Of a DNA stretch of 60,000 nucleotides, positions 520-59,913 are shown piece by piece. The DNA lies in NCBI GenBank assembly GCA_914767715.1, contig OU612072.1, positions 5,644,001 through 5,704,000 on the forward strand, read 5' to 3'. Origin of the DNA: Membranipora membranacea. Its lineage: Eukaryota > Bryozoa > Gymnolaemata > Cheilostomatida > Membraniporidae. The notes under the pieces are model-generated. The model worked only from the letters and a program-made list of their open reading frames with translations, was not told the DNA's origin and did not search any database. The translations under genes and the position numbers were made by a program. Within the stretch, counting starts at the first letter, position 1. The number at the start of each line of letters is the position of its first letter.

Positions 520-3500
520 TTACTTCTTGTGTTTCTGTAAATTTCTTTTTCTCAAAAGTATGAGTAGTAATATGATGAGGGTCACAACAACCAACGGGAC
601 AATCACTATACCAGCAATGACTCCGGATGGCAGTTCATCTTCAGGCTCTTTACTCTCTTCGTCTGGTGACAGCGTTATATCTTCCAGGGGAACTGTGGGT
701 AAAAATTAAACTGCTGCCATCTACAGGATGATTTGTGCTAATTAATTTTTCTTTCATAAAGCAGTGTCCGGCCTTTCCTTAGACACGATGCGCAAACATT
801 TCTATGAGATGAATTCAACAAGTTTTATTTCCCAACCACTATGCTATAATTGTGGCAGGGGCTTACATAATCATGAATAAGAATATAAGGATTGAAATCA
901 TCGGTAGTAGAATGTGGTTAAGAGTTATATCCACAACAAAAACAAAAATCCTTACAAAATAAGGGGATAGAAGGCTTTCCAAATATGACTAGAGGTTGAT
1001 TGGTCTGGCAAGTTTTCTGATTGAAATAATTAATTATCAGTCCAAAGGAAGCCTTAAGGTTTAAACAGCCTTGTGAGCAACACATGTATATCCAAAGTTC
1101 TGCTTACACACTACATTGCTAGCTTTATAAACAGGGTTATACCTTGAATATCAGCGATAGGTTGATCTAACACTTGTACATTAACATCGATTTGTCCCTG
1201 TAAAAATAGTCAATATTGAAGACGAAAATGATTCACTAACTTTCTATAATCTTACTATGGGAGGCACATATACATTAACAAAGAATTATGCACTGATGGA
1301 CGCATATCAGATTCGACTATGATGTGAACGAATTGCACCAATGCTAGCTGGATATAATTGGTTATCAAGAGAAATTTGATTATTTTCAAGTTGATTTGTG
1401 GTTAACATATTTGATTTTAATTGTCAAAAGTTTGCTTCCAACTACATCTTCAATTGTTACCAGCAAAATTATCCCCTTCCAAGAAAGCTATTTAAGTTAA
1501 TTTAATTTTATGTGATTTGTAATTACTCTCATGTAAGCCTTCAATTTTGGATATTTAAAATCGAAAGCTGCGTGAGTTTTACTGGTTCTAACTATTCCAA
1601 GCTGTCATTGATAGGATATCTGGGTTCTCAGCATAGAGTTATTATATACTCTAGAGTGGACAATGTAGTGCTAAAAACGTCCTACTTAAATATTGCGAAA
1701 TCCATGACACAATGCGATCTGGTTGTGCATGGCTAGTGCCTGTATCATATAACTTATCATTGAGAATATGCGTATTGGGCATGGCAATTTAGATTTTATG
1801 AGCGCTTTAGGCTTTTTATCAGAAAAATTTTTCATGGGATACCATGTAGATTACTTGCAGTATTTTCACTTTCAATTCCATGACGCAGCGAAAACTGGTT
1901 GTGCGTGAATAGTGCATAAATCATTGACTTTATCATTAAAAATATTAGAATTGGATATACAAATTAAGTTTATGGAGCACTTATAGCCATTTTATCAGAT
2001 AATTTCACATGTAGCACCATTTACATCACCTGCAGGTATTTTCTCTTCCAGTCAGTTTAACATTTTCTTATTCTCCCTTAAAAATAAGCCAAATATCAAC
2101 CGCAAGTACATGAGCTTAAATCGCAATGACAGGGCCAGCTGGTTTCTGCCACTTGCCAGGTATTTCGCTGTGTCCTGTCTCTCTTACTAATATGTTGCAC
2201 ACTTAGTTTGTTTAATTATCTGCCAAGTTCCAGCTACTGACGATGAATTGTGATAACATGGGGTAAAAGTAGCCTGTGGATAAACGATTGGAGGTGAAAA
2301 GTTTTGCATCTTGTCTTTATCATTTTTGGAGCATTTTTAGCAATATTTTTGTAAAACTTTTCATGCCACACTTTTAGACGACTTGCAAGTGATTCTTTTC
2401 AGGGGCAGACAGGGGACAAAGAGATTTGTGTTATCCCCTTAAACGATATTAACTGATATTAACATGGTTATATCAGTGCTGAGAAAGCCGATACAATTTT
2501 GCTCTCTCACCGATGTTTGTGAGAGATATTTCTGATTTCTCACCATACTCAAAATAAGAGATCATTTGGTTAAGGGGGGGGGGGTGGGGTGGGTGTAATG
2601 CATGTTTCGCTGATATTTGTTGATTTGTAAATATAAACATGAACATCATATACAGACAGGACACAGCTAATATGGCTGGCAAGTGCCAGTGGAAAAAATT
2701 AAGCTAGCCTGGTAGTTTCTATTTCATCACATTGATATGTTTGCGGTTAAGATTTTGGCTTATATTTTAATGGGAAAACATAGACACATTTTCCACTGGC
2801 TGTGAGTGAAAATACCTGCAAGTGATCCAAATAATGTCGCATAACATTTTTGTCGGAGAAAATGGCTATTAGCACTCTAAAGATCTAAATTTCCATGCGC
2901 AATACGTATATTCTCAATGATAAGTTATTTGATACAGGCACTAGCCATACACAACCAGATTGCGTTGTGTCATGGATTTCGCAATAATTAAGTAGGACAA
3001 AACTTGATGCTATTTTTGTACACATTGTCCACTCTAGAGTATATAATAACTCTATGGTTCTCAGGGTCAATTATCTAAGTTGCAACATGGAAAACATGGG
3101 TATCGGAGCTTTGGGTGCATCAGTGATGTATTACATTACTCCAAATTTCTTTGCAACAGCATTACTTAGATAAACACTGAATAAAAAAATACTAGGATAC
3201 TTCGATTCTGTGATGTTACCTCTTTTCGGACATCGACGCCGTAGTAGACATCATAACCAGATCCCTTTTCAAGCGGAACATTTTGAGCTCCATTGTATAT
3301 TTTTCCATCACCTACTGGAAATCTGTAGCCTGAATAATAAGACTCTGCAATATACTGCATGTTGATATTTATGACTATATTTTGGGCTGTACCAGACCAT
3401 AAATATGATAAGTATATATTTTTTCAAATGTGACATTATCTTTAAAAATAAAAAGCCAGTAAAGTTGTTGAGGGAAGAGCTTGTTTACTTACCGACTGGA

Positions 3501-6500
3501 GGGGCTTCTGTGAGAATGGCAGCCAAGTAATAATCTAGACTACAATCTACCGCTTCTGTGAAGTTGAGTAAGGGGTCGAATGTGGTAGGCCCAGCCCGTT
3601 CTGGTACAATCTGATAGGAACAAGACTGAGATGCTCTTCCTCCTTCCTCTTCAGCTGTTTTCTTCGTGACAATAACTTTGTATGCCCTAGAATAAGATGA
3701 ACTGCAGTGAGGTCTCATTCAACAGGGCAAGCATCTCATAATTCAGATTCAATATTGCAGAGAAATCAAGTTTCGATAACTATAAGCTTCGGGTAAACTT
3801 AATAATAATCTTCCTTAAGTCTGTGAGTAACACACAGTTTTTTAGGAGTTGACTAGTAACTGTGTGACATTTTCAATGTAGTTCCTGTTCATTGAGCAGT
3901 TTTGTCACACTAAAATTCATCAAATTCCAGTCATATATAATAGTAAAATCAGTAAAGGCTGTTTACTCACACAACTTTAGCAGGTGGTGGTGGTGATGTG
4001 ATAGCAGGAAGTGGTACTGGGAATATTCCACCTACTTTTGGAATCACTTCTTTTTCTTCAGGTACAACAATATCAACTACAAAAGAAAATCATAGGATAC
4101 TTAATTGATTCCAACAGATCATCCCTTCCTGCATGGTTCAATAACAGATATGATACCTTATGCCGAACGCATCAGGACACAACCTCTAGTTTGGAATATA
4201 TCTGACTCTTATTAAAATTCAAGGCTGCATTATTCTTTTACTTGTAATTTTGACCGACCATTGAATTTAAGGATCAAAAACGGAGTAAGCGCTGCTGTCA
4301 TAGCGGTTTCATCTCATTTACTTGATAAGTACTCACGATCAGTGACAGTTGAGACTTCTTCACTAGCAGGACCTCTGTTATATGTCGGTTTGTTAGATGT
4401 GAAGGCTGTGACATCACATTTCACCACCGAACCAGCTGAGAAACCACAAACATCTACAGATATTGGTAATGGTTCTGCAGGTACTTCCTCGTTTGTATCC
4501 AGCTCGCTACCACTAGTCCTACATGTAATCTACAGAAGTAAATGTAATCAAAAGTATGAGCACAGGTGTGGAAAGAAAAAAATTCATTATTGTGGCATTT
4601 AAAAACAGTCATAGGGTAAAATTGAATATCCACATTTAAGGTCATGCCTCGCCTAGGATACTATCTTGAGAACTACTGGTCTGATTTCCTCGATTTTTCA
4701 TTCTAATTGTACTTGTCTACTGACTGACTCATGGAAAGACATGTGACAGCATGGAAAGAAACGTTGACAAGCTGTAAAGACAGCTAAACATACTACAAGG
4801 GGTCCCAGCAATGGGCCATGTAAGGCCAATAACCCTAACACGTACGCTGTGTTTCATAGGGTGGCAATGGTGGATTGGAATGCGCTGTGGGATGAGAGAA
4901 TACAACTCCGAGTAGTGAATAGCGGGCTATCTGATTAACGCCATCAACCCATTCTTTTTTGGGGTTGGTGAGATGGCGCAATCGGTAGCGCGCTTGCGAT
5001 TAGTGCCGCAGGAGTTGTGGGTTCGATTCCCACTGGGGGAGCTTTCATTGTTGATTGTTCCAGCCCCCAGCACCCTCGGGTTTAGCAATTTCCAAACCCT
5101 CAATTTTCTTTAATTTAATTTTTTATGTATGTGATGGCAACTCATAAAATTTAAGCAACCGGTGCCCATGTAAAAGAATAGGAGCTGTCAATAACTGGGA
5201 GCATCTGGCTCAAACGCCTCACAACCATTTATTCGTATCAAACCAGGATTGGCAGCGCAAAGTAGTCCCAATAAAATTAAGTTGTGATAAATGATCCTAT
5301 GAAAAGCCTTGACATGAAATTAAAGTACTAAAGAAGGAAAGTTCTATGATAACAGACAGGAATTAACGAGCCAGCTTGTGAATTGTTGTATAATACACAA
5401 AAATGACTGGATTTTAGAGACTTATATTACTACGCCAAATCTGGTGTAGAAATATATCAGGCAAAAAACCATGAATGGATGGATTTTCCTCTGTATTCAT
5501 GAGGCATTTATTTCAATTCAAGTCCAGATGTTGGGAAACTTGGGAATATACAAAGAGGATATGTTTGTAGGTAGTTCTCATGCAATTGTTCACTCAACAT
5601 ATATTTTATTTGAAGTTAGCTTTGCAAGATGAATATTGAGTTTACAGCCTGCCTCTGGAAAACTGCATGATGGACCTTCTTATTATACCCCTTCTCCAAC
5701 ACAAAAATTTTATTTGGTTCAAAACAAATGGCTAGTGCCCTCACCAAGGCTTTGGATGATGCCCCTTGCAGAAAGAATATTTCAGTCTCAGTACTGTTTG
5801 CACATATTTATACTTCTCATTTTGTACAGCAAAGGGGGATTTTAGTCAAAATTTTGACTAGTTTAGGAGTAAGATAATTCAAAATTTCCAAGTGGCACAT
5901 CAATTTTATTTCATAAATACTGGTCAGCACTGGGCTAGTGAGGGCACTAGTGTGATCACATTTGTCCACCTTGGACATCAATTGACATAGCTCACTTTCT
6001 TTATAGCATTGTCAGCACTTATGGCATAGCTATCAGTATGTGAATTTGAATGCCGTTTTTTTACAAATCAAACATTGAACATTATTGTAGATATGGCTGC
6101 AAGATATAAGGGTAGCCTTTATGTATTAACTGCATTTTTTGCTACAAGAACTTGCAATGTCTTTTAAATTGGACAATAGTGACAGTAGGTATTGACATGT
6201 TGCTGAATTTCAGTGACACGCTATGACGTCACGTCATGGCGTAACGTCGTCAAATTTTGAGTTTAGACTTGAATTTGGCGAGGCATGACCTTAAGTACTG
6301 TTTACTTCTCACTGCATGAGTTTCCCCATTTTTGAAAATAAGTTTGAGATGCTCTACGTATTTTTCGACATTCAGCTTAAATAACGGAATAATATTATGT
6401 AATTAATTTATATATTAGTGTATCAACAGGAGTTTTTGTCCCTCACCTCCTGTTACAATCTTTTTTATTTGATTAAGACGCATCAATAAATATATTGCTA

Positions 6501-9500
6501 TACTAGTTTAAGGTAAAACTCACTTCATATTTTGTGATTGGACCAATTTCATTGCTCGTAGCATTGGACCATCGAACATTCACACATGTCTTATTAATCG
6601 CCAGTAGAGATATACCACTAGGTGCCTCTTTTGGTGCTGAAATGGAAAAGAGGTAAGACTCCTGAGCTGATTCATGACCAATGATGAAACAACCATTTTG
6701 TTCCGAGGGCTGGTGCCATAGAAGTGGCGAACATAATCGTTTAAAAGGCTATGGTTTGAGCTGAATGGTTCACGTTGCATGCACCATAGCTGGAAGAATT
6801 ACAATCTATATCACATTAAACTGAAACATACCTGCATTTATGGTTTTGAGCTGAAGATTTGACCACACACTTTTCCTATCCTGGTAATTTACTGCTCTTA
6901 CGCTGACTTCGTAATTTGTAAAGGCCTTTAGATTCACATCAATAAATAGGTTTGCAGAATTATAAGTTGTGCCATCTACGGAGATTATATAGGTGAGGAC
7001 TGTGTCCATCCAGGGCTCACATCCAGTTTTACCAGGTACCTGTAAGTTATATAGCAAGTGTAAGTTTGGAACAGGATAACACTTCCTTAACCATTATAAT
7101 GCTTTGCCCAAAGTAGCTTTCACTTTCTACAATAGGTAAATACCCAAGTTTCTAAACACCCCTTTTACATTCATTATGGCTTTGTGACATTAATATAATC
7201 ATTTAGGCCTACCTGCCAACTTATGGAAAGTTTGATGGGGTTCTCTTCATTCTGATGATCGATCGCCTGATCCACATTGGGCCCTCCTGCTTTCTGTGGG
7301 TCTGTTGAGACAAATAAAACAAAAAAGTATTACCAAGACCCTTCTTTGAAGGCGATCCGACCTTGATTTTTCATGAACATGATTATAATGTTATCTCTAA
7401 TCTATTCAAACCAAGGCTGATGGTCATTTAAGGAATTCCATAGTGCATTGTTGTCAAGATGCAGTGAAATTTGATGTAAGAACCTTTAGTACCATCATTG
7501 TTCTCACCTTTGCAGATATAGACAGAAGTAGATTTTATCATCATGTCATAGGTGAACAATTCTAATTTATAGTTGTATGTTGTAGAAGGACTCAGATCAA
7601 GGTGAGGAAAGTTTATTGACTCTCCGCCATTGCTCACTGCGATTTCTGACAATGTCTTCTTGGTTCCATCAGATTTCTCAAGCTTTAGAACCATCCTGGA
7701 AAAAAGTAAGCTTTATACTGTAATGGCAAATATTTAATTTAAGTTCTTTTTTATAGTTTAAGTCTAATAAGCCGTGAATAAAGAAATCAATTTTTCATTT
7801 ATTCTGGTTGTTGCCACTTCATTTGGAAATGGGGCCTGACTCAAAGGACACCGTGGTATTATGAAACACCAACTCTGATCATACATCTCTGCTGTATATA
7901 CCTCTGCCCAATCTGCTCACAATTTTTTGTTGATACATGACTATACCATTTATTTTCCTTGGGTTAAAAGTTAACAAAGCAACAACCCCTCAACGAGAGG
8001 ATAAAGAAGAATAAAGTCACAAACTTTGTGTTCTCAAATACCGATCCATTGTATCCATTTAGGCTTGCTTTTACAGTCACATTGAAAGGTGTTCTTTCTT
8101 CTGCTGACAGCTGAATATCCATCTTATCTATGTCTGCAAAATAAGATTAATATAAATATGTTAATTGGGTTATGGGGTACCTTTGCTTCCAATAGCTCAG
8201 ACCAAGCCTCAGAGGAAAGGGAAATATCAGGAAAAATTATCAATTATTCGCACTGCTCTGATGAATGAACATGAATGTGAAGAAGTATAGAAGACAGGTG
8301 TTGTTAAATCTAAAATATTGGCTGAGATGCCCAATCATTATTCCTTATTGTGGGGCCCTTCTTCAAGGTACTGACCCTTCTGTCACAATCATTGAAATAT
8401 AAATCAAGCAGGATTTTACGAATGCAAACAAATGATATGCCAACAGATAGTCCGTTTTATTTTTGCTGGATAAATTACCTTTTGGTAAAACACTTACCAT
8501 CTCTACTGAATCCTTCCACTGTTACTTCTCTCAAAGTCACACCTCCTTGTGAAATGAAGACAGCAATATGTCTGGTTGATATGTTCGCCTTATATTTCAG
8601 GTCTCTTAAGTCTCCAGCAGGCTGAGGTACAGTATATACAGCTGTCCAGTCAGATAGGGAGGTACTGAGAGATGGTGGGCTGTCAGTTGTGCTTATCAGT
8701 ATCTGCGCTCCACTCAGCCTGTTATCTACAGGGGTAGCGAGGGAAGTTAATTATTTTGTTAGACAATTACCACTTTGCCCATGTGAATCAATCAATTCAG
8801 GTTGGTTATTTTGGCCCCGTAACGACTGAACTAATTCAAATGTGCTTGAGTTCTCAAATTGGAAAGTCACAAGTTACCTGGCTTTCATAGGTAAAATGTA
8901 AATAAGTCAACTGGGCCAGTTTGTGGCGCTGTCGCTACGGTGCAGAGAGACTCGTATCACAAAGTCGGTCTGCAAGCGGTGTGGACAATTACTGCAGAAA
9001 CCTAACAGATGCAAGGAGACACCGGTGGCGAGTACGGGCGTATAACACTGAGATTGTTTTTACTATTCAAATAAAAAATACCTGATGTATAAAAAGTAAC
9101 AATCCATATAAGCTTTCATGCTTGTGATCTAAGGTCTATATGAGGATATCCTTTTCTATACGAGAAGGCTGACAGTATTTATATCCTCATTTGAGTGAGA
9201 GTAAAATTATTGAGATACTGCACTCCGACTACAAAATTAATTGGCTTTAATACCATTTTACGTATTGTTGCTGCTGTGTTGTGTAAACCTACACGCCTTT
9301 CGTATTTTGCATAATTTCTTTTGAAATTGCTTTCAAGTATTAATATACATCAACTTTATTTGCTGGTCAAGTCATAGGCCTACATGTGCTTGATATCAAG
9401 TAGGCATGTTGAACTAATTTATACTTACTTAAGTCAGCGACACCGCCCCTATTACAAAGGGTGATTCTATAAATGTAGTAGATCCTCTCCAGGTCAACTC

Positions 9501-10335
9501 TCCACCAGCTGTTGGCTTCATTATAAGTGTGAATATACAGTCTATCATATGCTAAAAGATCGCTACAGCTTTCTGGACGTGGAACTCCATCCACAGCTAC
9601 ACCAGACGGCTGCTCACCAGTCACACCAGCAGCACTTGCTGGCCTACTGAAATAAGATGACTGATTGGCTGGTTTTCCTACAGCTACATTCACTCCAGCG
9701 TCTGTACAACCTGTATGATTATTAAATCATAATTTAGCAACATGACATAAGGTATATCAAATGTGATGTTGAGTTGTGATGAAAGGGTTACACTGCTAGT
9801 ATAAGCTGATATACTATGTTTGAAGATTTTAGCTCAGGAACGAGGGTATGCGGAGCAGGGCTTTGAGTATTCGCTGTGAGTAGTTACAATTAACTGGTAG
9901 GGTTTGATGAAAAATCTTTGAAAATCCGTCCCCATGCCGGCGGATTCTTTTCACGCTTTTTTCTCAGCTCTATCAAAGAGAATGGATGCATTTTTCTAGG
10001 GCACGCCAAGAGGTGACAACTCAGCTCGATCTAGGCTGACCTCAAATTTCACATGGAAACATGGTGTCTATGAGACTTCCTGGCTCCCCATCAGTTGAAC
10101 AAGACAATTCCAAATATGTGGCTTTGACCGCCAACACGAATATCCCATAATCACCATTACCAACCAAACCGACCGTTACAAGAATCTTCAATAGTGTGGG
10201 TGGTCTCAAATACTGATGATACAAACCCCCACATTCAGGTGAAGTTGTAAATCACGAATTACTTTCCATAACGCACTAAGAGACACAACAGTTCTTACCC
10301 AATAGAGCAACGCAGAAAACAAACGCAAGATGCAT
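520..10335 (-). CDS. Gene 1: F-type lectin/FN3 single-pass receptor (14 exons, 694 aa short form)
   Basis: Exons (minus strand, 5' to 3'): 10335-10299, 9710-9429, 8725-8498, 8133-8025, 7695-7508, 7301-7213, 7039-6832, 6636-6524, 4529-4337, 4076-3971, 3686-3493, 3329-3220, 1197-1143, 692-520. All junctions are GT/AG, phases are continuous, and the total of 2085 nt ends at TAA. Residues 1-17 look like a signal peptide (MHLAFVFCVALLG), 18-182 an F-type lectin domain, 183-281, 282-380 and 381-482 three FN3-like domains, 483-637 a membrane-proximal region, 662-684 a transmembrane helix, and 685-694 a basic tail. Inferred role: cell-surface recognition receptor. The terminal TAA lies inside a perfect GTAAGT donor (exon end 524), so the full-length form probably splices to tail exons left of base 1, as in gene 2. 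The 3' end may therefore be incomplete. The start is the only ATG giving a signal peptide in phase with exon 2. Confidence 0.85.
1629..3056. mobile_element. Long-hairpin element in gene 1 intron 12
   Basis: Bases from 1629 (CATAGAGTTATTATATACTC) reappear inverted ending at 3056. Further paired blocks include the segment around 1690-1790 with 2885-3000 and the segment around 2140-2190 with 2640-2690. The arms are several hundred bases long with scattered mismatches, the turn is near 2400, and no coding sequence is seen. The corresponding intron of gene 2 lacks it. Confidence 0.6.
2576..2598. repeat. Poly-G tract
   Basis: A run of G interrupted only by two T residues lies inside the hairpin element. 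It is a simple-sequence tract with no other visible role. Confidence 0.8.
4640..6290. mobile_element. TTAA-flanked element with 14-bp terminal inverted repeats
   Basis: GGTCATGCCTCGCC at 4640-4653 is repeated exactly inverted at 6277-6290, and each end is flanked by TTAA (4636-4639, 6291-6294). TTAA duplication is typical of piggyBac-type elements. No transposase is encoded in the 1651 bp, so this is non-autonomous. It lies in intron 8 of gene 1 and contains a SINE-like tRNA unit. Confidence 0.7.
4960..5145 (+). repeat. tRNA-derived SINE-like repeat
   Basis: GATGGCGCAATCGGTAGCGC resembles an A box and GTGGGTTCGATTCCCAC a B box with T stem. They are spaced as in a tRNA, but the acceptor stem does not pair. 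A SINE-like 3' body with a T/A-rich end follows. Nested in the TTAA element. Confidence 0.55.
8498..9710 (-). other. Gene 1 F-type lectin (fucolectin/FTP) domain, exons 2-3
   Basis: Two exons (9710-9429 and 8725-8498) encode about 170 residues with family hallmarks: NVAVGKPANQSS at the start, AVDG, NSWWRVDL, then ITLCNRG and RLSGAQIL. The known F-type sugar-binding motif is H-x26-R-x-D-x4-R/K. Here His and the first Arg are present with exactly 26 residues between them, but the RxD aspartate is missing (R-G-G), so classical fucose binding is doubtful. The module is flanked by phase-1 introns on both sides. Confidence 0.85.
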
Positions 10336-24311: not shown

Positions 24312-24669
24312 GTCATCGGCCTACTCTCTCTGGACTTGCTTAAGGAGATACATTTTAGCAGCCTCTAGATCGCCGACTGTGACTGCTGTGCTGCCACCTC
24401 TAAAAGACTTTCTTCTCACTACTGAGTAAACCTTCGCCAGAGTCCATTGTAACTTCTCGGCGGAAGAAAATCGCTGAGGATCTATCAATGGAGAAGACTT
24501 AACTCTGCTATGGTGTGTTTGTAGAATCCTCTTCTCTCCAGGCAGCTGCTGTTGTAGATTATCAAGCTGACTCTGCTTCTTGAGTGGCCATTTTGATTCA
24601 GGGCGGTAAAGAAACTCTGGTCAATTAAACCAATCAGATTTGGGTGCCAAGTCAGACGGGGTTCTGCCT

Positions 24670-26264: not shown

Positions 26265-26275
26265 CTCTTCACAAA

Positions 26276-26304
26276 GGACAAATCTATCTATATTAGATAG
26301 ATTT
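26276..26304. repeat. Short palindrome in the retrotransposon pol
   Basis: ACAAATCTATCTA and its complement TAGATAGATTTGT flank three bases, exactly where the protease frame ends and the RT frame begins. Confidence 0.6.
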
Positions 26305-32783: not shown

Positions 32784-32788
32784 GTAAG

Positions 32789-33905: not shown

Positions 33906-33950
<45 letters not shown>

Positions 33951-35801
33951 CATTCACGCCACTTCACAGTCATCTATTGTTTTTTCTTCAGTTAAAAGGA
34001 AAACATATATACTGGTACCATATCACGCAGCTAGTTGATAGCAGGGAAGCAGGAGTTATTTCCACAACACATCATCTTACCAAGCAACATATCCATCGCC
34101 AAAGCTATTCACGAATGAAAGTGAAGTATGCGGTACAGGTCAGTTGATTTCCTGAGAATCGCAAATGTAAATCAATCAAACGAAAAGGTTTAATCTGTTG
34201 GAATCCTGTTGAGCCCAAAATCTCACACCCAAGCTGCGAGTTTCAGTTCTAGCTTTGGTATGACTTTGTTATTTTGTCATCAATGATAAAGAGGTAAACA
34301 CTTCAGGCTTGTTAACAAAGAGATTGTCTGAGGCAGGACGTTTGGTTGTTTGCTATGGCAGCATTTTGGCTGCTGATCATATCACATCGAGTGTGTTAGT
34401 AGTAATAAGTATCGATACTTTTCCTTCACTCACTGAGGACTGCATTTGACAATTGTCTTTGCTCTACATTAATCCTCCCTTAATTCTTTCAAGGTTCTCA
34501 GTAGACGCACATATGAAGCCTTACAAAATCTCAAAAACGATGCGTACGATAGCACAGTGGAGCTGCTACGTTACATCAACTATGTATTTGATATACTGAA
34601 TATGAGGTCTAGAAACGAGGGAGCACGTTCGAGGAACAAGTACAAGAGTCCGCTGACAAGTTCTGATGACTGGCGCTTTGAGGTAAATACAGAGCAAAAT
34701 AAGCAAGCAACCCACCAATTGTCATGTTTTTGCTGTTGATATAGTCCAATCCCTGGTTAGCATGCACTTTTGCAGTTGTGTTCACAGGGATATTGAGCAG
34801 ACAACTCTTATCATTTCAAGTGACCTTATTTTCTATCCGTGCAGAACATTTATTTCCAGAGCTTGGATCATATCTAAATAAGTCAATAATAGATAAAGTC
34901 AAGATAAGTTAGTGATATACCTACACTGAGTCCCACTCTTAATTTTAGTATGTTGAGGGTTTCATCGCCTGGCTAAATGATTGGGAGACGGAAGTGGCCG
35001 GCAAGCAGATGAGCGCAGAAGACAGTGCTAAGTGTCTTTTGAGCCCAGCTACTAGGGATGGCTGGAAAATAACATGTAAATATTTAATCAGATACAGTCG
35101 GACAGCCTGGGTCATCCCGTAGCAAGTATGACTTTGACCTAATAACTATGCATCTGTACCGTAGATAGAAATGATGTCAACACAACAGGGAGCTACAGAA
35201 CTCCTTGATCACACTCTATATCTGTTAGTTTGTTAACCAGAGCTGATATAACTATGCATGCAAACCCACTTTGTGGTTCTCAATATATATCCACTGGTTT
35301 GTGGCTTTATATTTACTGTTATGGCTTATTATCTCTCATTTCATCAAAAGCTATGCACTCTGTCCTCACCGCTACCATTTTTAGGGCTAGGGGAGACTAA
35401 TCTAAATAATTGGTGTAAGTTGGTTAATAGTATTTGTATCAATTCACACCTTTGCTGCCAAATATTATTTATAATCTTCTTCGCACATTTCAGGCATGAG
35501 TTTTATGAAGCTCTCGAAAGATCTGTTGGCAGAGGGCTACTCATTCATTCTGACTGAGAAACTTCTGTGTCAGGACCCTACAGAACAGTATTTCAGCAGA
35601 GTAAGAAACTCTACAGGTAGCAACAATGCCCCCACAATGGCTCAATTCAACAGCTTTACACGCCTCCATTCCGTCACTAAGTCCGCCCAGAGGGACTTGA
35701 AGACGGGAAACACAACAACTGGAGCAAAGCCAAAGCTCCGTGTAAGCGAGCAGCCAACGCCAAAGAGAGCCAGGAAACCACCAAAAAAACTAACTTTATA
35801 A
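32789..35801 (+). CDS. P/THAP9-like transposase, catalytic core (4 exons, 657 aa)
   Basis: Exons 32789-34138, 34494-34682, 34949-35075 and 35494-35801 join in phase with GT/AG sites to give 657 codons plus stop. The N-terminus has Cys pairs (CKSC, CPPC) but no THAP domain. RWHPSIIRWCLVVHNKS and LPSERTLRDYV are the family's pre-catalytic motif. Catalytic residues: Asp in ALCFDEMKVKEG, Asp in VSDGAATIRMF, and Glu in CQDPTEQYFSRVR. LTKQHIHRQSYSRMKVKYA and VLSRRTYEAL sit between them as in THAP9/P transposases. The usual C-terminal GG-I/RGGL region is absent; the protein ends in a basic Lys/Pro tail. A CT repeat at 33910-33948 lies in frame in exon 1 (or in a small intron ending at the acceptor near 33990). 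It may still be active, as no stop interrupts it. Confidence 0.8.
33910..33948. repeat. (CT)n microsatellite in transposase coding region
   Basis: A dinucleotide run encodes alternating Ser/Leu right after the second catalytic Asp block. The next recognisable motif starts after a strong acceptor-like TTTTTTCTTCAG near 33992, so the run may be part of a short intron. Confidence 0.85.
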
Positions 35802-50540: not shown

Positions 50541-51219
50541 ATGTCTGTTAAAATCAAGCCTACCAGCCAGGCATAAAAAGATGTTGTTTATCAACTATGA
50601 TATGATTTTATTTTTGTACTAACTTACTATCTCAAACTTAGAGAGAAACTGCATATAATTTGATATAAACGGTGAAAATAATTGATCCATTATTGGTGAA
50701 GTCCGCTATCAAATATGAAGTGTCAAGCTGTAAGAGGGAAGGGTGAAAGGGAGCTAAAGATAGTTACAGTCGTCGCATTTATAAAGGATAACAGACAAAA
50801 CATAGTGAGGGAATAAAACGTATGCATAGAATGTGTCCTTAGTGTTTAATATTTGTACGACAGTCAAAGACTGAAACTCCCCGTAATACCAAGTCACAGT
50901 GATACAATTAAAGGGTTGGAAATAATGTGTATGTATGTGTGTAGTAGGAGTAGCGAATTAAACTCAGATTATTTTTAGGTTATGGCAGAAATGCTGTAAA
51001 ACTTATCACTTCTCTACAACACTCTCAGATATGGTTTTCACATTCAAAAACTTATTAATGTGCTGAGTAATAGGTTTTTCATACCGTGTGCAGTCAGTCT
51101 ATTGATTCTCGTGTCAGAAAGTATCACTTATGTATGTCATACACACCTAGAACTCTTACTATATTATACATAGCTTCTCTACTGAATGTTACTTACATTC
51201 TCATAGTTCTTTTCTAGGC
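50541..51219. other. 3' flank of gene 2
   Basis: No coding sequence. On the minus strand this would be the 3' UTR and downstream region of gene 2. I did not identify a definite polyadenylation site. Confidence 0.35.
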
Positions 51220-51482
51220 CTACATTGGCATAGGTAGACCTATGGCTTGTGATGATGAAGTGACACTTCTAAGCTGATGATTATCTCCGCAGTTTGATTC
51301 TGCATACACATGATCATCTTCTACTCTAGCCCTGCTCAGCACCTCATACTGTGAGGATAAGGTAGCATACTGAAGATCTTCTTTAGAAGAGATTAAGTTA
51401 TCAGGTACAGTCTCATATTCAGCAGTTGTTTGTGATTTGGATGTCGGAACATCAAGGATTATCTCCTCATAGTCCCTTGGAT
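51220..51482 (-). other. Gene 2 last exon: tyrosine-motif cytoplasmic tail
   Basis: This exon was found by reading the minus strand. The acceptor is ...TTTGATAAG|ATCC and the exon is read in phase 1. The frame is open for 87 residues to TAG at 51220-51222. Motifs in order: RDYEEI (51477-51460), AEYETV (51423-51406), LQYATL (51375-51358), SQYEVL (51354-51337), then HVYAES. LQYATL and SQYEVL fit the ITIM consensus (S/I/V/L)xYxx(I/V/L). YEEI is the optimal Src-family SH2 ligand. The phase fits only the preceding 59-nt exon, which supports the model. Confidence 0.72.
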
Positions 51483-54400
51483 CTTATCAAATAGGAAACA
51501 TACTAAATTTACTAATGATTCAGATGTAAAGATTCACAGGTAAAAATCATACTGTGGTCTGAAGATAGACACAAAATCAATAGCAAGGAAACTAGACGTT
51601 AATTTGAAACATAATAGAATTAACAAACCAGGCTTGACAGTCCGTTCTTTATCTAGTTATTTCTCTGTCAAGTTATGCAAATAAACCTTCACAATTTACA
51701 ATAAGGGAATTTGATTCGAGCAATGAGTGAGTTTTTGTGATAGAAGAAGCTAGAATTTCATCACTCACCGTGGGTCTGGGGAGAGCTTGCTGCCGGATAG
51801 TGCTCTTTGCCGCTAATTCTATCTGTACTGCAAATGGTAGTGAAGCAGTATGAACTAAGGCCAGAGCAGATAGGCACAATTTATTGAGGTTGGAGACAGC
51901 ATAGGGTAAGTGACTTCTCATATTTCACCTCTACTCTGAATTTTACATTTTCAAATTTTCATTCACAGTCAGTACCATTATGAACCACAACATTGGTGTA
52001 CATTAAAATTTCCAAACTTTGAATAAGTAAACCTACTTCTTGGTTTGCTGCATATTTCTTTTCTTCAAAAGTATGACCAGTAATATGATGAGGGTACCAA
52101 CAACCAAGGGTACAATCACTATTCCAGCAATGACTCCGGATGACAGATCACCTTTAGGCTCTATACTCTCTGGGTCTGGTGATAGTGTTATATCTTCCAG
52201 AGGAGCTGTGGGGACACAATCAAATCTTGGCAAAATCCATTGGATGCAACAGCTTGAAGATACTTATCTTCTTAAAGCTGTGTCTGGCCCTTAATAAAGT
52301 ATGATGGCATGAACATGAGCATGAGATGAATCGAACAATTTTTGGCTCTGTATATTACACTGTAAATTTAGCAGGATCGTGCATAGTCATTACTAAGAAG
52401 AAGGATATGGGGATATAAGGATTGAATGCCTCAGTACCAGACTGTTGTTAAGAATTATTACTGTGACAACAACAACAAAAAATGTATGGCCTGCCACGTA
52501 GAACCATGCAGTCCAATTTATAAAATAAGGGGATAGAAGGCTTTCTAAATATGACTAGATGTTGTTCCGTATGGCAAGTTTTCTGATTGAAACAATCGAT
52601 TTTTATTCCAAAGGAATCCTTAAGATTTAAACAGACTTGTGAGCATCACATGCAGATCCAAGGTCTGCTTACACACTACTTTGCTAGCTTTATAAACAGG
52701 GTTATACCTTGAATATCAGCGATAGGTTGATCCAACACTTGAACAATAACATCGGTTTGTCCCTGTAAAAATAGTCAAAGTCAAAGACAAAGATGATTCA
52801 ATAACTTTCTAGTATCACACTATGGGAGGCACATAGACATTCATAAAGAATAATCCAGTGATGGACCAATATCAGATTCGACTATGATGCCAACGAATTG
52901 CACCAATGCTAGCTGGATATAATCGTTATCAAGAGAAATTTGATTATTTTCAAGTTGATTTGTGGTTAACATATTTGATTTTAATTGAATTGCAAAGTCA
53001 CACATCACCGAAACAAGGAAGCAGAATCTGTTACCATAGACCAGTTAATGACTTGTATGGATGCAAATGCACTGCGTCCACACTTGGTACAAATAAAAAC
53101 TTATGGTAGGGAAGTAACCTTTCAGAAGCATACTATACGAAATATTTGTGTTTCTTGACCCTGGATTGTTTTCTAAGCTGCGGAAAAGACACCCATATAT
53201 TAAGAACGGGAGCCAGAAGTAGTTTCACAAAGCATATTTTTATTTTTACATCAATCGAATTGCACACTGTGAGCTACTTCCTTCTAGAAATTCTAAGAAA
53301 TTAACTGACACCAACTAAAATGCCCCCTAGAGGCATTGAAATTAACTTCATGCGTGTATTTAATTGGCTAAAAGACAATTTGTGTGCCACTTTTATCGGG
53401 TGTGTCTGTTATTAGATGTCATTTATAGGCCCAAAAGGTCATCAGGGTTAACAATCAAAAGTTTCAACATGAGCATGAGTGTCATAACTTTGGGTGTATC
53501 AGTGAATCATCTCATCATAAAAATTGTCGTCTGTTTTATCGATAAAATCCCATTTCATTGGCTGTATCTCATGCAATACTGATTCCATGCCTTCCAATGC
53601 AAGGCAATGATCACGAAGCAATGTGATTAGGGTGCCAATACTTCAACACGCTTCCCAGTTTTGTTACTCATTTTAATTACCTGTTTCAGTGACTCATCCT
53701 ACTTTTTCTCCCACGAAATAAAACCTACCTGTATTCGGACATCAACACCGTAGTAAACATCGTATCCAGATCCTTTTTCAAGTGGAACATTGAGAACTCC
53801 ATTGTAAATATTGCCATCACCTACTGGAAATCGGTAGCCTGTACAATAAAAATTGATGATTGTTTGTAAGATAGTTAAGATAAAAAATATGGGAAGTTAT
53901 GATTTGGTCAGCGATGTGAATATTTGTGAAAAAAATCAGGTAACCAAGGTCAATGAATAACCTCATTGCAAGATTAACTAATAGTATCATGTCTTTTCAT
54001 CTAAGACTAGACTAAGTTAACTTTTATGCAGCCATGGCAAAATAATTAAGTTTGTTTTCGCACCAGCTGGAGGGGCTTCTGTGAGAATGGCAGCCAAGTA
54101 ATAATCTAGACTGCAATCTGCTGCTTCTGTGAAGTTGAGTAATGGGTCAAATATGGTAGGCCCAGCCCGTTCTGGTATGATCTGATAGGAACAAGACTGA
54201 GATGCTCGTCTCTCTCTTCCTCTTTCCGCTGCAGCTGTTTTCCTTGCGACAATAACTTTGTAAGCCCTGGAATACGACACACATGAAGAAAGAAGTCTCA
54301 ATTTTGGTGAATCGATCACAAAATTAATTCAATGTTTTCATTTGCTCTTTTCTTTCAGTTTCGAACATTGTAAACTTTAGGAAAAAAATTGACAAGCGTC

Positions 54401-57400
54401 TACTGATATATTCCCTTGTATTTGGGCAGCAATATACCTTAGTTGTTGTTCATAAAATTATTTCCGACCAACGAATCGGAGCCTTTGTAGCATTTTCAAA
54501 AGCATGAAGCTATCGAGGATGTTTACTCACACAACTTGAGCGTTTTCAGGTGTTGGGATGTCAGGAAGTGGTACTGGGAATATTCCACCTACTTCAGGGA
54601 TCACTTCTTCTTGAGGTACAGAAATACCAACTACAAACAAATCATTTCAGGATTATTAATTGATTTCAACACCTGTATGCTCACATCATCAGGATGAAAC
54701 TTCTAGTTTGTGATATATCTGACTCTTATTACAGGTCAAGTCTGCATAATGCTTTTACTCATAATGTTTTCATTGCCTATTGTAATAAGGGATCAAAGAT
54801 GGAATTTCGCCGTTGTCATAGTTTTCCCTTTGATTTGGTTGATAAGTACTCACAATTTATATGGGTGATGGTAGATACTTCTTCACTGGCAGGACCTCTG
54901 TTATATCTCTGGTTGTTAGATGTGAAGGCTGTGACATCACATTTCACTTCAGTACCAGCTGAGAAGCCACAGATATCTACAGATATCGGTAATGTTCCTG
55001 CAGGTTCTTCCTTCTTTATATCAAGATCAGTGCTATTATGCTTACATGTAATCTACAGCAATGCAAATGTAATAAGAAAAAAATGAGAACAGGTGTGGGA
55101 AGAAAATTGAATCAGCTTTTGTCACTTTCCAAAGCATCTATGGTTTAGATTGAATCTCCTGATCCTGTAGGAGATAATTCAATATCATGTAATTTTCACA
55201 GCATGAGTTTTCCTGTTGCGAAATCAAGTTCGGGATATTCAGCTTATCCTTTGACTTGCCGCTCAAACAGCATAACAGCATTATTCAGTAATCAATTGAT
55301 AAATTTGTATATTCAACTATGGAGTTTTTGTCCCATACTTCATCTCACAACATTGAAGAGATTTTGAAAGTTTTACATGAAGCTAACAATCTAGAAATCT
55401 AACAATCTAGTCCAGTTTTAATCTTATAGACAATAGTGTTGTATTGAGCCAGCAAAAATGAAAATGAGCCACTGAAATTTCCCTAAATTCGGGTACGAGT
55501 CGGGTCGAGTCGAAAAGAGCCGTGAAATGGATTTACATTACGACTTCATAAGTCGATGTCCTACTCCTACACTGTCTTCAGATATCACAATTTAAAAGAA
55601 TGATGGATATTCATCAACTAATCACTAGTGCAATTAGCTAATAGTACATGTTAAGTTTGATTCAGTTTGTAATATATCATCTAGACATAATGAACTATGT
55701 TGAGACCAAGTTTCATCGAATTCTGTCAAGGTTTTATCAAACTATAGATGTCTGAAGAAAGCTTTATGCAGTCTTGTAAGCCGTTCATAATAATCACAGC
55801 AAAAGCATGACTAATAGCTATATGTGTTTTATCATCGTATAGTCTGTATTTCCGATATCATCACCTAAAATCCATAGCATAGTGGTTAAGATCGTGGACT
55901 GTTGTGCACTAGGTCTAAGTATTTTGACCATCACTCTAGTAGATGAGACCCGTAAGGATGTAGACCTCTGACCCGAATTGACCCTAACATGACCCGACCG
56001 TTGAAACATGAAACTCCGTAGATTCCCAGAGTTAATTACGGTTAACTCACTTGGTATTTGGTGATTGGACCATTTACATTGCTCGTAGCATTTGACCATC
56101 GGATATTCACACATGTCTTGTTAACTGCTAGTAGAGAAATTCCACTAGGTGCTTCGTTCGGTGCTAGAACAAACAAATAGATTAGAGCAGCTGAGAATAT
56201 AACCAAAAAATATAAATCAAATAATCCACGATAAAAGAAAGACTTTTTCCAAGGGCCAATGCCCTTTGAGAGCCATAATACTTTTCTTATGATTTAGAGA
56301 GGTAACAAGTTTATCATTTTCAAACGACTTTGGTTAAAGGGGAAAGGTTCAGTTTGCAGATTAGCCAGTGCATGCTTCAGTAAGAGTGAGCGATGCTTTT
56401 CATAGTTATTGTTCACATGGTCTTTCAACTAGACAAATTTGGTCACAAACTCTTCACTCAGAATGTTTATAGTTCCATCAAAGAGTGAGCGATTTGAGAA
56501 CGAGACCCCTGCAGATATCCCTCCCACACAGATTGAGCGACCAGATAGTGATGTCAGCTGTTTTCAAATTGAAAGATGCCGCAGAGGAATTCCGATTAAT
56601 ATCACAGTTGATTGAAAACAAACCTGTAGATATGGTTGTCAGTTGAAGTCTTGACCACACACTTTCCATACCCTGGGAATTTACTGCTCTTACACTGACT
56701 TCATAATTTTTATGGGCCTTCAGTGTCACATCAAGAGCTGGGTCCATAGAATTATAGGTGGTATCATCAACAGAGATTATATAAGTTAGAATCTGGTTCA
56801 TCAAGGGCTCACAACCAGTTGTACCAGGTACCTACAAACCATAAAACAAAGGCATGCATATCTTTAAGAGCCATTTAATTTGAAATCCTCCAAACCATTT
56901 TAATGTCTTCCTTAAATCAATTTCTGCTACATTGAATACTATACAGGATCTTAAGTTGGTGTGCGCTTATTAAAGAAGGAAAAGGGGATAAACAGTCGTA
57001 TGCAAAACATTATCACCTGCCATCTGATGAACAAATTGACTGGTCTTTCTTCATTCTCCATATCTTCTGACTGAGTCACAGATATTTCTCCTGGTGTGCT
57101 TGGATCTGATTACCGAGAGGAAAAATAACAAGTGTGTTATAAAAAACCTTCTGCCTTAATCGACTGAACTGGTTTGAAAGCCGTAGAAGGATTGCTTCAT
57201 ATTGACAAGAAATTTACATCTGCTGTACCATGAATATTCGATTTGCGAGTCATTGTCATTTAATTGATAAAGATACATAGGATAAATTGGTCTTACCACT
57301 GCACGTATAGGCGATGAAGTTTTCTGAAATGTCATGGATTTCATTTCCATGGCATAGGTGAATAGCTTGATTACACAAGAGTATGTTGTAGAGTGACTCA

Positions 57401-59913
57401 AACCAACATGAGAGAAGATTATTGAAATGCTAAAAACTTTTCTTATGTGTATACAGCCAGTAAATACATTGTCAGGTTATTAGTTCATAGACTTCTTCCC
57501 CAGTCATGACAACAGCTTTGTGTAAGGTCAAAAAAGGAAAAAAATGCCGGTGTGGCTCCTATGCTGACCAAAATGACTCAGTAGCTCATTTTGTTGTTAG
57601 GGATTATATCAATTGGTCTCTGTTGCCACAATACCATGAGCAATTTTACATATAGACTAGACTCTGTTTGTTGCCGATTTACTCACCTTGACAAATGTAA
57701 GGCGAAGTGCTTGCATTAAATCGTTGATTAAGCAACACATGACTGTATGTTAAAATTTCGGCCTCAAAGAAATATTGAGTTGATGGTGTCAGGTTTTCTT
57801 GTGAGAAGACAATGTCCTCTGTGCCGCCCATTATGATTCTCCTTTGGATTTGATTCCTTTCACCTGCGGCGGATATCTCGTAAATTGTTAAACTGCATAA
57901 AAAGAAGAAAGGATAAAACAAGTTTTCTTTGTTGCATTTATAACCATGCCAATTCTTTCATGGTGAATCAGGGGTTTAAATGAAGTACCAATGAGTGTTA
58001 CACATTTGGTCACATTTGTGGATACATTGGGCCTGTAGATAAGCTCAACATTTCATTCCTCACTTTTATGGATAGTTGTGTCGTTCATGATAGTCATGTG
58101 ACATGCTGAGAACAACAATAAAATTAAATCTCGAGGAAGTTATTTTATTGAAATAACTAAGCCTCATCATGATTTCACATTCTCAATTATGAAAAAATAT
58201 AAAACCTCTCATACCACAGCTTGGCAATTATGAATGTTGATATGGGTGTTAGAGCTGCAGCTGCTGTTGATACGTTTAAGCAGTGACAGCTTTCGACAAA
58301 AATTATTGAAGCTACTTTTCCAGTGATTGTGGCTCAAAACCGTCACCCATTTAGGTCACAGTGGTGAAAAGTCTACTGAGCAAGGTAATTTATCCGATTT
58401 AATAATTTGGTATAATTTGGTAGCCATGTTTCAGACGATAACTTTTGGCTTAATCGATTCTAAAATACTAAGTCCTGCTTTTTACTGTTTGATGCAATAT
58501 CTTAAAACAAAACAATTCAAAGGCTCACCGACCACTCACATGGAATACTCAAATGTTGATGTGTTGAATTGAGATAGACTGATTGTTAGATTCATTGTGA
58601 ATGGAGAAATTTCATCAATGTATTGTTGGAGGTTGATGGCAATGACATCTGTAAGAGAAAGCAGACAAAGCGTAGGCTATTGACGATGATTTGGTGGCCT
58701 ACTATCTGAGAGGGGAAATTGTGCTGAATCTCGAGCCCAGCGGAAGGTGAAACAGCTTAGGCTCTCCCTAGCTCAGCTCTTTTCAAACTTTGCTTGTTCC
58801 AATTATTGCCCAATCACATAGCACTGGATATCATTGGGCTGTGGATCTTCAAGATATTGTAGATGGTGTTATAAAAGCCAGTATTTCTTTTTAATTACTC
58901 AAACTATAAGGCGACTCACCTTCCATGCTGAATCCCTCAACAGTGACCTCTCTCAGAGTAACAGATGCACTAGAAGGATTAAATAAAGCAATGTGTCGAG
59001 CACTCTCAGCAGCATAGAATTCAGCATCAGTAAAGTCGCCTGCAGGCTCCCTGACAGTGTAGATTGACCTCCAATTATTTCCAATTGTACTTGGATTTGA
59101 TGGATTGGAACTACTGCTTGACAAAATCTGTACATTATTGAGCCGACTGTCTACAAATCATAATATAGTCATAGCCACATAAATGTTTGGGAAAAGCTTG
59201 ACAGTAATAGACGATATCAGAAGTGCCAATTATCGTCCTTACTTATATTTTTGACATCATTCTCACAGGCTGCGGACAGGACACAGGAGGAGGGTTCGTT
59301 TCATTTTGATGCAGCGCATCTTTATTTTTGTTGTTTCGGTGTTTGTTTTCATGGTTGATACACTGTTGAGTGGATTTTTTTAGAGATCGAACATATTAGG
59401 ACCTATCTCAAGTGTTGCCTGCACTTCCCTTTAACACTCGGCATCAACAGCATCCCTAAATAAACTATAGGAGTGATTCAAACTCAACATTGTGGCATCT
59501 GGATTTAAATGGTCTGAATTTTGAGAACAATGTCTGATGACTATTTCAGATTGAAAAAAGTATTATTATTCGAAATCAGCGCTCGCTAACATCAGTCAAT
59601 ATCTTCATATTTGTGTCAAATATCCACTATCACTTACTCAATACAGAACCTCTATTACAAATAGTTATTCTGTAGATGTAGTAGATCTTTCCCAAGTCAA
59701 CTTTCCACCAGCTGTTTGTATATGGCTCTGTATGGGAAAACAGTCCGTCTAATCTATCCAGATTTGTACATTGGTTAGGTCGTGGTATTCCATCAACGGC
59801 TATTGAAGGTACTCTTGGCCCTGTCTCACCTGCCACACTACGGGGCCGATCAAACGTAGTGGACTGTAGGACATTTTTCCCGATCGCAACGTTGACACTC
59901 GCGTGGCTATGAC
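51220..59913 (-). CDS. Gene 2: paralogous F-type lectin/FN3 receptor with ITIM-like tail (5' partial)
   Basis: Exons in the window (minus strand): 59913-59638, 59150-58920, 58648-58540, 57892-57687, 57105-57017, 56831-56624, 56163-56051, 55052-54854, 54630-54531, 54266-54064, 53838-53729, 52762-52708, 52205-52037, 51827-51769, 51482-51220. The signal-peptide exon lies beyond base 60000. Phases match gene 1 exon for exon and the model stays open for 795 codons to TAG at 51220. Architecture: F-type lectin, three FN3-like domains, RPTP-like membrane-proximal region, transmembrane helix (VIAGIVIVPLVVGTLIILL), then a cytoplasmic tail of about 116 residues with five YxxΦ-like or related tyrosine motifs. 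If intron 52036-51828 is retained, translation stops at 52033 and leaves a 10-residue tail. No phosphatase or kinase domain is present. Inferred role: adhesion or recognition receptor signalling through SH2 proteins. Transcript data are needed for the last three exons. Confidence 0.82.
51769..51827 (-). other. Gene 2 small cytoplasmic linker exon (59 nt)
   Basis: A strong acceptor (pyrimidine-rich, ending CATTTGCAG) and a strong donor (CACG|GTGAGTG) bound 59 nt that are open in the one phase (2 to 1) needed to join the transmembrane exon to the tyrosine-motif exon. It encodes about 19 polar residues with one tyrosine (EHYPAAS). Confidence 0.68.
57297..57420 (-). pseudogene. Degenerate extra copy of the FN3 exon 5 in gene 2
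   Basis: The minus strand reads LSHSTTYSCVIKLFTYAME, close to gene 1 exon 5 (LSPSTTYNYKLELFTYDMM). It is followed by a GTAAGA donor at its end. The 5' half of the exon and its acceptor are not recognisable, and the last codons are shifted in frame relative to SPYICQG of the true exon 5. I read it as a duplicated exon that decayed, lying between exons 5 and 6 of gene 2. Confidence 0.55.
58920..59913 (-). other. Gene 2 F-type lectin domain, exons 2-3
   Basis: Exons 59913-59638 and 59150-58920 encode NVAIGKN, AVDGIPRP, NSWWKVDL, ITICNRG and VTVEGFS in the same order as gene 1. The H-x26-R spacing is conserved, but the RxD aspartate is serine (R-G-S). Identity to gene 1 is moderate, clearly lower than in the membrane-proximal exons. 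Confidence 0.83.

What the first reader, a model, noticed from the sequence alone, without database searches (positions are those of the whole stretch)
51220..52205. Immunoreceptor-like tyrosine tail on an invertebrate F-type lectin/FN3 receptor
Seen: two small exons (51827-51769, 51482-51220) fit the transmembrane exon in phase and give a tail of about 116 residues containing RDYEEI, AEYETV, LQYATL, SQYEVL and HVYAES. Known: (S/I/V/L)xYxx(I/V/L) is the ITIM consensus and pYEEI is the preferred Src-family SH2 ligand. Inference: the protein is an inhibitory or dual-mode recognition receptor, comparable in logic (not in ectodomain) to Hydractinia Alr proteins or vertebrate inhibitory receptors. 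I know of no described family that pairs an F-type lectin domain with RPTP-like FN3 repeats and such a tail.
Basis: partly seen in the sequence, partly recalled or inferred. Interest (0 to 1): 0.88.

Follow-up and report, generated by a model that had tools for sequence, protein, structure and literature searches.

The report
Sea-mat lectin receptors with swapped tails
A cluster of duplicated cell-surface receptor genes in a colonial sea animal appears to join one lectin-like outer part either to an enzyme that removes phosphate from proteins or to a tail of tyrosine docking sites, which makes it a testable candidate for how these colonies sense self, non-self or microbes.

Summary
The exons described are real and in phase; copies in the same genome carry the same small exon and tyrosine exon in the same order. 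Contig lengths identify the genome as Membranipora membranacea (Bryozoa), chromosome 8. Gene A (window 59913-51220, minus strand) reads: F-type-lectin-like domain, three FN3-like domains, RPTP-like membrane-proximal FN3 with a furin-type site, TM, tyrosine tail. Gene B (10335-524) is a tandem paralogue. A genome search found 11 tail exons on C8 and four on C3. Tyrosines tend to outlast other tail residues in diverged copies.

Corrections: A's stop is a lesion (one base missing relative to B and C), so A loses STYANV and NYENV and its last residues are out of frame. LQYATL is private to A. Family tails are multi-site YxxΦ/YxN tails with one to three strict ITIMs, not clearly inhibitory.

New: three copies in this cluster are followed, on the same strand, by phosphatase exons with an intact active-site signature instead of the tail. 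One ectodomain may thus feed a built-in phosphatase or an SH2-docking tail. Immune or allorecognition use is inferred; transcripts and SH2 partners were not tested.

The parts
59638..59913 (-). Gene A exon 2: first half of F-type-lectin-like domain (signal exon lies outside the window)
   Evidence: phase and homology with gene B; Pfam F5_F8_type_C_2 and PDB FBP32
58920..59150 (-). Gene A exon 3: second half of F-type-lectin-like domain
58540..58648 (-). Gene A exon 4: distal FN3-like domain, first half
   Evidence: FN3-like by position and eye only, no Pfam match of its own
57687..57892 (-). Gene A exon 5: distal FN3-like domain, second half
   Evidence: no Pfam match of its own
57017..57105 (-). 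Gene A exon 6: FN3 no. 2, first half
56624..56831 (-). Gene A exon 7: FN3 no. 2, second half
   Evidence: fn3 18.6 bits, below cut-off 25
56051..56163 (-). Gene A exon 8: FN3 no. 3, first half
   Evidence: best fn3 stretch of the protein, over cut-off
54854..55052 (-). Gene A exon 9: FN3 no. 3, second half
   Evidence: best fn3 stretch of the protein, over cut-off
54531..54630 (-). Gene A exon 10: linker into membrane-proximal domain
54064..54266 (-). Gene A exon 11: RPTP-like membrane-proximal FN3 with furin-type RERR
   Evidence: Fn3_PTPRU 28.0 bits against cut-off 24.7 for the isolated domain; RPTP mu in PDB; RERR
53729..53838 (-). Gene A exon 12: membrane-proximal FN3, continued
52708..52762 (-). 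Gene A exon 13: end of membrane-proximal domain
52037..52205 (-). Gene A exon 14: stalk and transmembrane segment
   Evidence: 95-98% identical in copies C, c5535 and c5571, 78% in B
51769..51827 (-). Gene A exon 15: small juxtamembrane exon (phase 2 to 1)
   Evidence: conserved in B and C and in c5551, c5571, c5535; same phases in a C3 receptor (my reading)
51220..51482 (-). Gene A exon 16: tyrosine-motif exon, ending at a stop reached after a one-base deletion near 51246
51197..51238 (-). Out-of-frame remnant STYANVGLEKNYEN of the family tail in gene A
   Evidence: corresponding peptide in the tail's frame in copies C and c5525
10299..10335 (-). Gene B signal-peptide exon (MHLAFVFCVALLG)
   Evidence: a similar exon in gene C
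9429..9710 (-). Gene B F-type-lectin-like domain, first half
8498..8725 (-). Gene B F-type-lectin-like domain, second half
524..8133 (-). Gene B exons 8133-8025, 7695-7508, 7301-7213, 7039-6832, 6636-6524, 4529-4337, 4076-3971, 3686-3493, 3329-3220, 1197-1143 and 692-524 (FN3-like domains, membrane-proximal domain, TM); tail lies left of the window in L009

Best explanation
Gene A is one copy of a clustered receptor family on chromosome 8 of Membranipora membranacea. Shown by sequence: an F-type-lectin-like domain, FN3-like domains and an RPTP-like membrane-proximal FN3, in most copies read with a furin-type site, then TM. Tail exons with several tyrosine motifs lie behind it in many copies (11 tail exons on C8), while three copies are followed by phosphatase exons instead. 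Inferred: the distal domain binds a glycan or protein ligand on cells or microbes. Clustering lets Src-type kinases phosphorylate the tail of the tail-bearing copies, which then docks SH2 proteins (SHP-type phosphatases at SQYEVL/STYANV, Grb2-type adaptors at YANV/YENV, Src-type SH2 at YEEI). The phosphatase copies act directly. One recognition module is thus wired to two tyrosine-signalling outputs, in the manner of paired receptors. In gene A the last two docking sites are lost.
For: Gene structure and phases. Paralogue tails. Tyrosine retention against other residues in diverged copies: c5785 7/7 v 57/94, c5811 7/7 v 30/85, C3_25006 6/7 v 32/90 (one-sided Fisher p 0.036, 0.001, 0.014). Family tail c5525 has six Yxx[ILV], shuffle p=9e-5. 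dN/dS over 46 tail codons against the diverged copy d5002 is 0.37-0.50. Phosphatase exons with HC|SAGVGRTG lie behind the TM exons of c5807 and c5752 and behind the c5460 TM; the tail search listed no tail behind these three. RPTP-like domain. Furin-type site in 7 of 9 copies with that exon read: A, C, c5551, c5571, c5535, c5807, c5752; not B or the decayed c5733. F-type-lectin assignment with basic triad in A. Species from contig lengths.
Against: No transcript was seen, and the joins of phosphatase exons to TM exons rest on order and strand. Tyrosine retention in d5002 (5/7 v 41/94, p=0.15) is not significant. Tail similarity among close copies is largely recent homogenisation: dN/dS among them ranges from 0 to above 3. 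Of 11 C8 tail exons, 5 are broken or cut short (A, B, C, c5541, c5724), so part of the cluster is decaying. In the c5525 tail, shuffles give p=0.04 for two strict ITIMs and p=0.08 for two YxN. The lectin domain of A lacks the motif's acidic residue and the two adjacent cysteines, and the basic-triad pattern was not found in C or c5571, so sugar binding is uncertain. Whether the genome encodes SHP-like proteins could not be tested (the PF00017 search did not complete).
Confidence: 0.62

Rival explanations
1. The tail is mainly an endocytic or trafficking tail: Yxx[ILV] sites fit AP-2 sorting signals, and the receptor is a scavenger or adhesion lectin without SH2 signalling.
For: Four Yxx[ILV] in A and six in c5525 fit YxxΦ equally well (motif recalled).
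Against: The tyrosine of HVYAES, which is not YxxΦ, is kept in 12 of 12 rows aligned. Phosphatase-bearing sister copies point to tyrosine signalling.
Confidence: 0.2
2. The tail activates rather than inhibits: YEEI and YxN sites recruit Src- and Grb2-type proteins, and the phosphatase copies are the negative partners.
For: The YEEI tyrosine is kept in 9 of 11 rows with a residue there, and two YxN sites occur in 8 of 12 rows; strict-ITIM enrichment is modest.
Against: SQYEVL and STYANV are strict ITIMs kept in several copies; the YxN count alone is not beyond chance (p=0.08).
Confidence: 0.35
3. Gene A itself is a decaying copy with a truncated tail; only other copies (such as c5535 and c5571) work as full receptors.
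For: One-base deletion in A; 5 of 11 C8 tails broken or cut short.
Against: Gene A is open over the rest of its 15 exons and keeps four Yxx[ILV]. The A-B comparison gives dN/dS 0.37 over 677 aligned codons, though synonymous sites are saturated in the two distal domains.
Confidence: 0.35
4. The tyrosine exon belongs to another gene and is not joined to the TM exon.
For: Weak acceptor score at 51482.
Against: Same order, phase and acceptor position in B and C; same phases in the C3 receptor (my reading).
Confidence: 0.03

Closest known systems
Type IIB receptor tyrosine phosphatases (PTPRM/PTPRK/PTPRU)
   Same: Fn3_PTPRU-like membrane-proximal domain with a furin-type site just before a cysteine, single TM; PTPRM has its furin loop anchored by a disulfide in FN4 (PMC9800333, passages). 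Copies c5807, c5752 and c5460 are followed by PTP exons.
   Different: F-type-lectin-like domain in place of MAM and Ig; the window genes have a tyrosine tail and no phosphatase found.
Botryllus fester co-receptors (FcoR)
   Same: Linked receptor family with ITIM, hemITAM and Yxx(I/L/V) tails (PMC12065747, passages).
   Different: FcoR ectodomains are Ig and sushi; no phosphatase-bearing sister copies are mentioned in the passages seen; polymorphism was studied there, not here.
Hydractinia Alr family
   Same: Clustered receptors in a colonial animal; ITAM/ITIM motifs reported (PMC12065747, passages); 41 members (PMC11999971, passages).
   Different: [quoted passage not shown] here F-type-lectin-like plus FN3. 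Homology was not tested and is not claimed.
F-type lectins (AAA, MsaFBP32) and mosaic FTLs (furrowed, SpCRL)
   Same: Domain matches FBP32 (E 2.7e-14) and the lectin 1k12 (AAA, name recalled); basic triad H, R, R at AAA spacing in A.
   Different: Acidic residue and adjacent cysteines missing; the word fibronectin does not occur in the FTL review searched (PMC5712786, passages).

Membership tests
ITIM-bearing inhibitory receptor | (S/I/V/L)xYxx(I/V/L) in the cytoplasmic tail | tested here: met
   A: LQYATL, SQYEVL; one to three per tail in the 12 rows
ITIM-bearing inhibitory receptor | Recruitment of SHP or SHIP and inhibition of an activating receptor | not testable with these tools
   No binding or cell data; the genome SH2 search (PF00017) did not complete
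Receptor tyrosine phosphatase (RPTP) | RPTP-type membrane-proximal FN3 and TM | tested here: met
   Fn3_PTPRU 28.0 bits against 24.7 for the isolated domain of A; just below cut-off in the full-length A and B scans (23.8, 24.2)
Receptor tyrosine phosphatase (RPTP) | Cytoplasmic PTP domain with HCxxGxxR | tested here: not met
   Window genes: no PTP exon in the window or behind any tail-bearing copy within the 300 kb read by tblastn. The pattern scan was also empty but could not see a signature split by an intron, as it is here. The signature is present behind c5807, c5752 and c5460
F-type lectin | F-type domain sequence | tested here: met
   F5_F8_type_C_2 over cut-off; FBP32 and AAA in PDB by sequence; fold itself not predicted
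F-type lectin | HX24RXDX4(R/K) fucose motif as printed in PMC5712786 | tested here: inconclusive
   A: H-X26-R-X-S-X4-R, the spacing seen in AAA itself by my count; acidic residue replaced; B has two extra residues; pattern absent in C and c5571
F-type lectin | Fucose binding | not testable with these tools
   needs glycan array
Hydractinia Alr / Botryllus FcoR | Ig-type ectodomain | tested here: not met
   Pfam: no Ig family over cut-off in A or B; Ig_Rha78A_N listed below cut-off
Allorecognition receptor | Polymorphism that predicts fusion or rejection | not testable with these tools
   one haplotype only

The most novel reading that the evidence does not exclude
Chromosome 8 of a bryozoan carries a self/non-self or microbe-sensing receptor complex in which one F-type-lectin/FN3 ectodomain is wired either to a covalent tyrosine phosphatase or, after exon swapping, to a multi-tyrosine tail that recruits SH2 proteins. 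The tail module is shared with receptors of another ectodomain on chromosome 3. It would be a molecular candidate for bryozoan colony recognition, for which I found none in the search made, and a new form of paired receptor (built-in enzyme against docking tail).
Probability: 0.3. Interest if true: 0.92.

Novelty: new variant of a known kind. Interest (0 to 1): 0.8.

Why it matters
Colony recognition has molecular candidates in hydroids and ascidians (PMC12065747, passages). Bryozoans are listed among animals with allorecognition (PMC3549757 and PMC12018476, passages), and none of the 12 papers listed is titled as a bryozoan gene study. This cluster gives mapped candidates with a signalling hypothesis. 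If confirmed, it would extend to a non-Ig architecture the idea that allorecognition systems converge on ITIM-type signalling. It also suggests that one genome tries two outputs on one ectodomain: a built-in phosphatase and a docking tail that might recruit one.

Tried and rejected
Rejected: that the stop at 51220 is the natural end of the family tail. That a further exon at 50727 completes the tail: I considered it from gene A alone, but copy C and c5525 read to a stop without splicing. That the tail continues into a phosphatase in the window genes. That the C5 tail match is real: on reading it is not tail-like. CUB in the C3 ectodomain: seen by eye, no Pfam match; sushi only below cut-off.

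Led nowhere or weak: two protein-database searches with gene A found nothing (the 8000 candidates sharing most words, none at E 0.001; 3450 candidates, none at E 10). A control with a retroelement ORF of the window found 106 proteins, some of named animals, so animals are in the database, but only relatives sharing several exact words can be found; absence there is weak evidence. Rfam gave one tRNA-like hit; ARAGORN none. The codon test of the out-of-frame remnant was near neutral (-2.2 over 24 codons, +2.1 over the last 14). The pattern scan for phosphatase signatures was unsuited, because the signature is split by an intron here. The species came to mind from the genome size; the assembly table then confirmed it.
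Full report
WHAT IS THERE. On the minus strand, window 59913-51220 holds a receptor gene (gene A) whose signal-peptide exon lies outside the window. Fifteen exons join in phase with one open frame. The same window holds a tandem paralogue, gene B (10335-524), from signal peptide to TM, with the same exon order and phases. Pfam finds F5_F8_type_C_2 and fn3 over cut-off in both; Fn3_PTPRU is over cut-off for the isolated membrane-proximal domain of A and just below it in the full-length scans. The distal FN3-like domain of A has no Pfam match of its own. By sequence, the closest solved structures are the F-type lectins FBP32 and AAA for the first domain and RPTP mu for the membrane-proximal one.

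WHICH ANIMAL. The own genome has 339,339,785 bases in 18 contigs; C5 is 29,963,023, C3 35,043,895 and C8 27,174,903 bases long. The published Membranipora membranacea assembly has a scaffold N50 of 29,963,023 and chromosomes 3, 5 and 8 of 35.04, 29.96 and 27.17 Mb; its total is 339,374,674 bases in 21 scaffolds, so small pieces differ (PMC10290214, passages).

THE TAIL IS REAL, BUT ITS END IN GENE A IS A LESION. The stretch left of the window (L009) holds gene B's small exon and tyrosine exon, and the stretch to the right (L010, L011) a third gene, C. The alignment of A, B and C shows both exons, their splice-site positions and their phases conserved. It also shows that C's tail frame reads on through STYANVGLENNYENVSNTQ and then stops. 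A lacks one base near 51246 and leaves this frame; B lacks one base further on; C has an in-frame stop earlier in the exon. Copy c5525 is intact to the family end.

HOW MANY COPIES. A genome search with the tail gave 21 matches: 11 tail exons on C8, four on C3, one unconvincing on C5, four small exons, and one second piece of a broken copy. Reading them, 6 of 11 C8 tails are open to the family end (c5525, c5562, d5505, c5785, c5811, d5002; d5505 runs on beyond it) and 5 are broken or cut short (A, B, C, c5541, c5724). Tail and gene names pair as c5525 with c5535, c5562 with c5571, c5541 with c5551, c5785 with c5789, c5724 with c5733, and probably c5811 with c5822. Splice-aware reading of nine copies gave all 14 exons searched for A, C, c5571 and c5535. 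It gave 13 of 14 for c5551 (no open TM exon) and exons 1-13 for c5807. It gave gaps for c5752 and c5789 and a decayed copy for c5733. The signal exon was not modelled in that call. Copies c5535 and c5571 also have intact tails, so copies open from lectin domain to full tail exist. A search with the lectin domain gave 55 matches, among them further first exons on C8 and a separate group on C6 at 2.5-2.9 Mb. The search tool calls such counts lower bounds.

WHAT IS CONSERVED IN THE TAIL. The alignment has 12 rows; c5541 and two near-identical C3 copies were left out, as was the C5 match. In diverged copies, tyrosines tend to outlast other residues: 7/7 v 57/94 (c5785), 5/7 v 41/94 (d5002), 7/7 v 30/85 (c5811) and 6/7 v 32/90 (C3_25006), with one-sided Fisher p of 0.036, 0.15, 0.001 and 0.014. 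These rows are related, so the tests are not independent. The tyrosine of HVYAES is kept in 12 of 12 rows and that of STYANV in 11 of 11 rows with a residue there; the rows include A and B as read and C after its stop. The L of LQYATL is private to A. Among the seven close C8 copies compared, the tail is nearly identical at silent sites too (dS 0.03-0.15 over 46 codons), so its similarity there reflects recent homogenisation as much as selection. Against d5002, dN/dS is 0.37-0.50.

MOSAIC EVOLUTION. Between A and B, silent sites are saturated in the lectin and distal domains but dS is 0.29 in the membrane-proximal domain; between A and C it is saturated against 0.05. A and c5551 are close throughout the exons compared. 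Between A and B, introns 1-6, 9 and 10 gave no alignment, while introns 7, 8, 11 and 12 did. The outer part is diverse; the membrane-proximal part, TM and tail are kept alike. This fits gene conversion or unequal crossing-over, and is the pattern expected of a recognition family with a shared signalling end (inference).

TWO OUTPUTS ON ONE ECTODOMAIN. The genome search for PF00102 placed phosphatase exons behind the TM exons of c5807 and c5752 and behind copy c5460 (c5460 was read only in its phosphatase stretch). Their exons read ILTHC|SAGVGRTG across a splice site, the PTP active-site signature. Whether the whole phosphatase domains are intact was not assessed. In the 300 kb fetched, phosphatase exons occur only behind c5807 and c5752, plus one weak fragment about 4 kb further on, and behind none of the tail-bearing copies there; d5505, d5002 and c5460 lie outside that stretch. 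The joins to the TM exons are inferred from order and strand, without transcripts. In the FN3-3 plus membrane-proximal tree the two phosphatase copies group apart from six tail copies with full support. In the lectin tree c5822 groups with them (98/95) although a tail exon lies about 7 kb behind its TM exon. The output may therefore have switched more than once, if that exon belongs to that gene.

THE TAIL MODULE IS SHARED. The C3 copy at 25.006 Mb has the same phases by my reading of the DNA (TM exon ends in phase 2, small exon 2 to 1, tyrosine exon), but in 9.9 kb upstream no lectin, FN3 or RPTP-like exon was found with A and B as queries (best E 0.42); a sushi-like repeat is below cut-off. 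The other three C3 copies were read only at the tail. Exon shuffling of a tail module is the simplest reading (inference).

HOW IT MOST LIKELY WORKS. Shown: domain order, tail motifs, conserved tyrosines, phosphatase exons behind sister copies. Inferred: ligand binding, phosphorylation of the tail and docking of SH2 proteins. My estimates: phosphotyrosine docking 0.8; mainly inhibitory 0.45; immune or allorecognition role 0.4. SH2 preferences, the AP-2 motif and the ITIM consensus are recalled, not tested.

IN PRINT. Text searches of the open PMC library for F-type lectin or fucolectin with FN3, ITIM or immunoreceptor terms, and for ITIM in invertebrate allorecognition, gave no listing whose title or abstract start describes this architecture; one search found no paper holding all four terms, and one search listed 20 of 462. 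Most subscription papers are not in that library. One search listed 12 of 13 papers on allorecognition terms including 'bryozoan'; I saw passages of two, which name bryozoans only in passing.

I recounted the furin-type site (7 of 9), the strict ITIMs per tail (one to three) and the HVYAES column, added the lectin-triad misses and the YxN shuffle, and withdrew as a phosphatase control.

Noticed in passing
   Followed up: no
own genome C6 2.48-2.91 Mb: A second group of F-type-lectin-like exons with FN3 and PTP matches in or near it.
   Followed up: no
own genome C3 25.006 Mb (L035, L040): Receptor-like gene with the same kind of tyrosine tail and a different upstream region, sushi-like below cut-off.
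   Followed up: partly
C8 5822661-5811488 and 5789118-5785117: Apparently short forms: lectin, one FN3-like domain, TM-like segment, tail.
   Followed up: partly
own genome C4 20.262-20.306 Mb: Dense run of fn3 matches with open frames up to 974 residues, probably a giant FN3 protein.
   Followed up: no
window 23076-27387 minus: BEL/Pao-type retroelement between genes A and B; a 97% identical protein is in the database.
   Followed up: partly
window 32753-34144 plus: Transposase-like ORF with TNP-like RNase H match.
   Followed up: no
window 4973-5034 plus: tRNA-like Rfam match in an intron of gene B, possibly a SINE.
   Followed up: no
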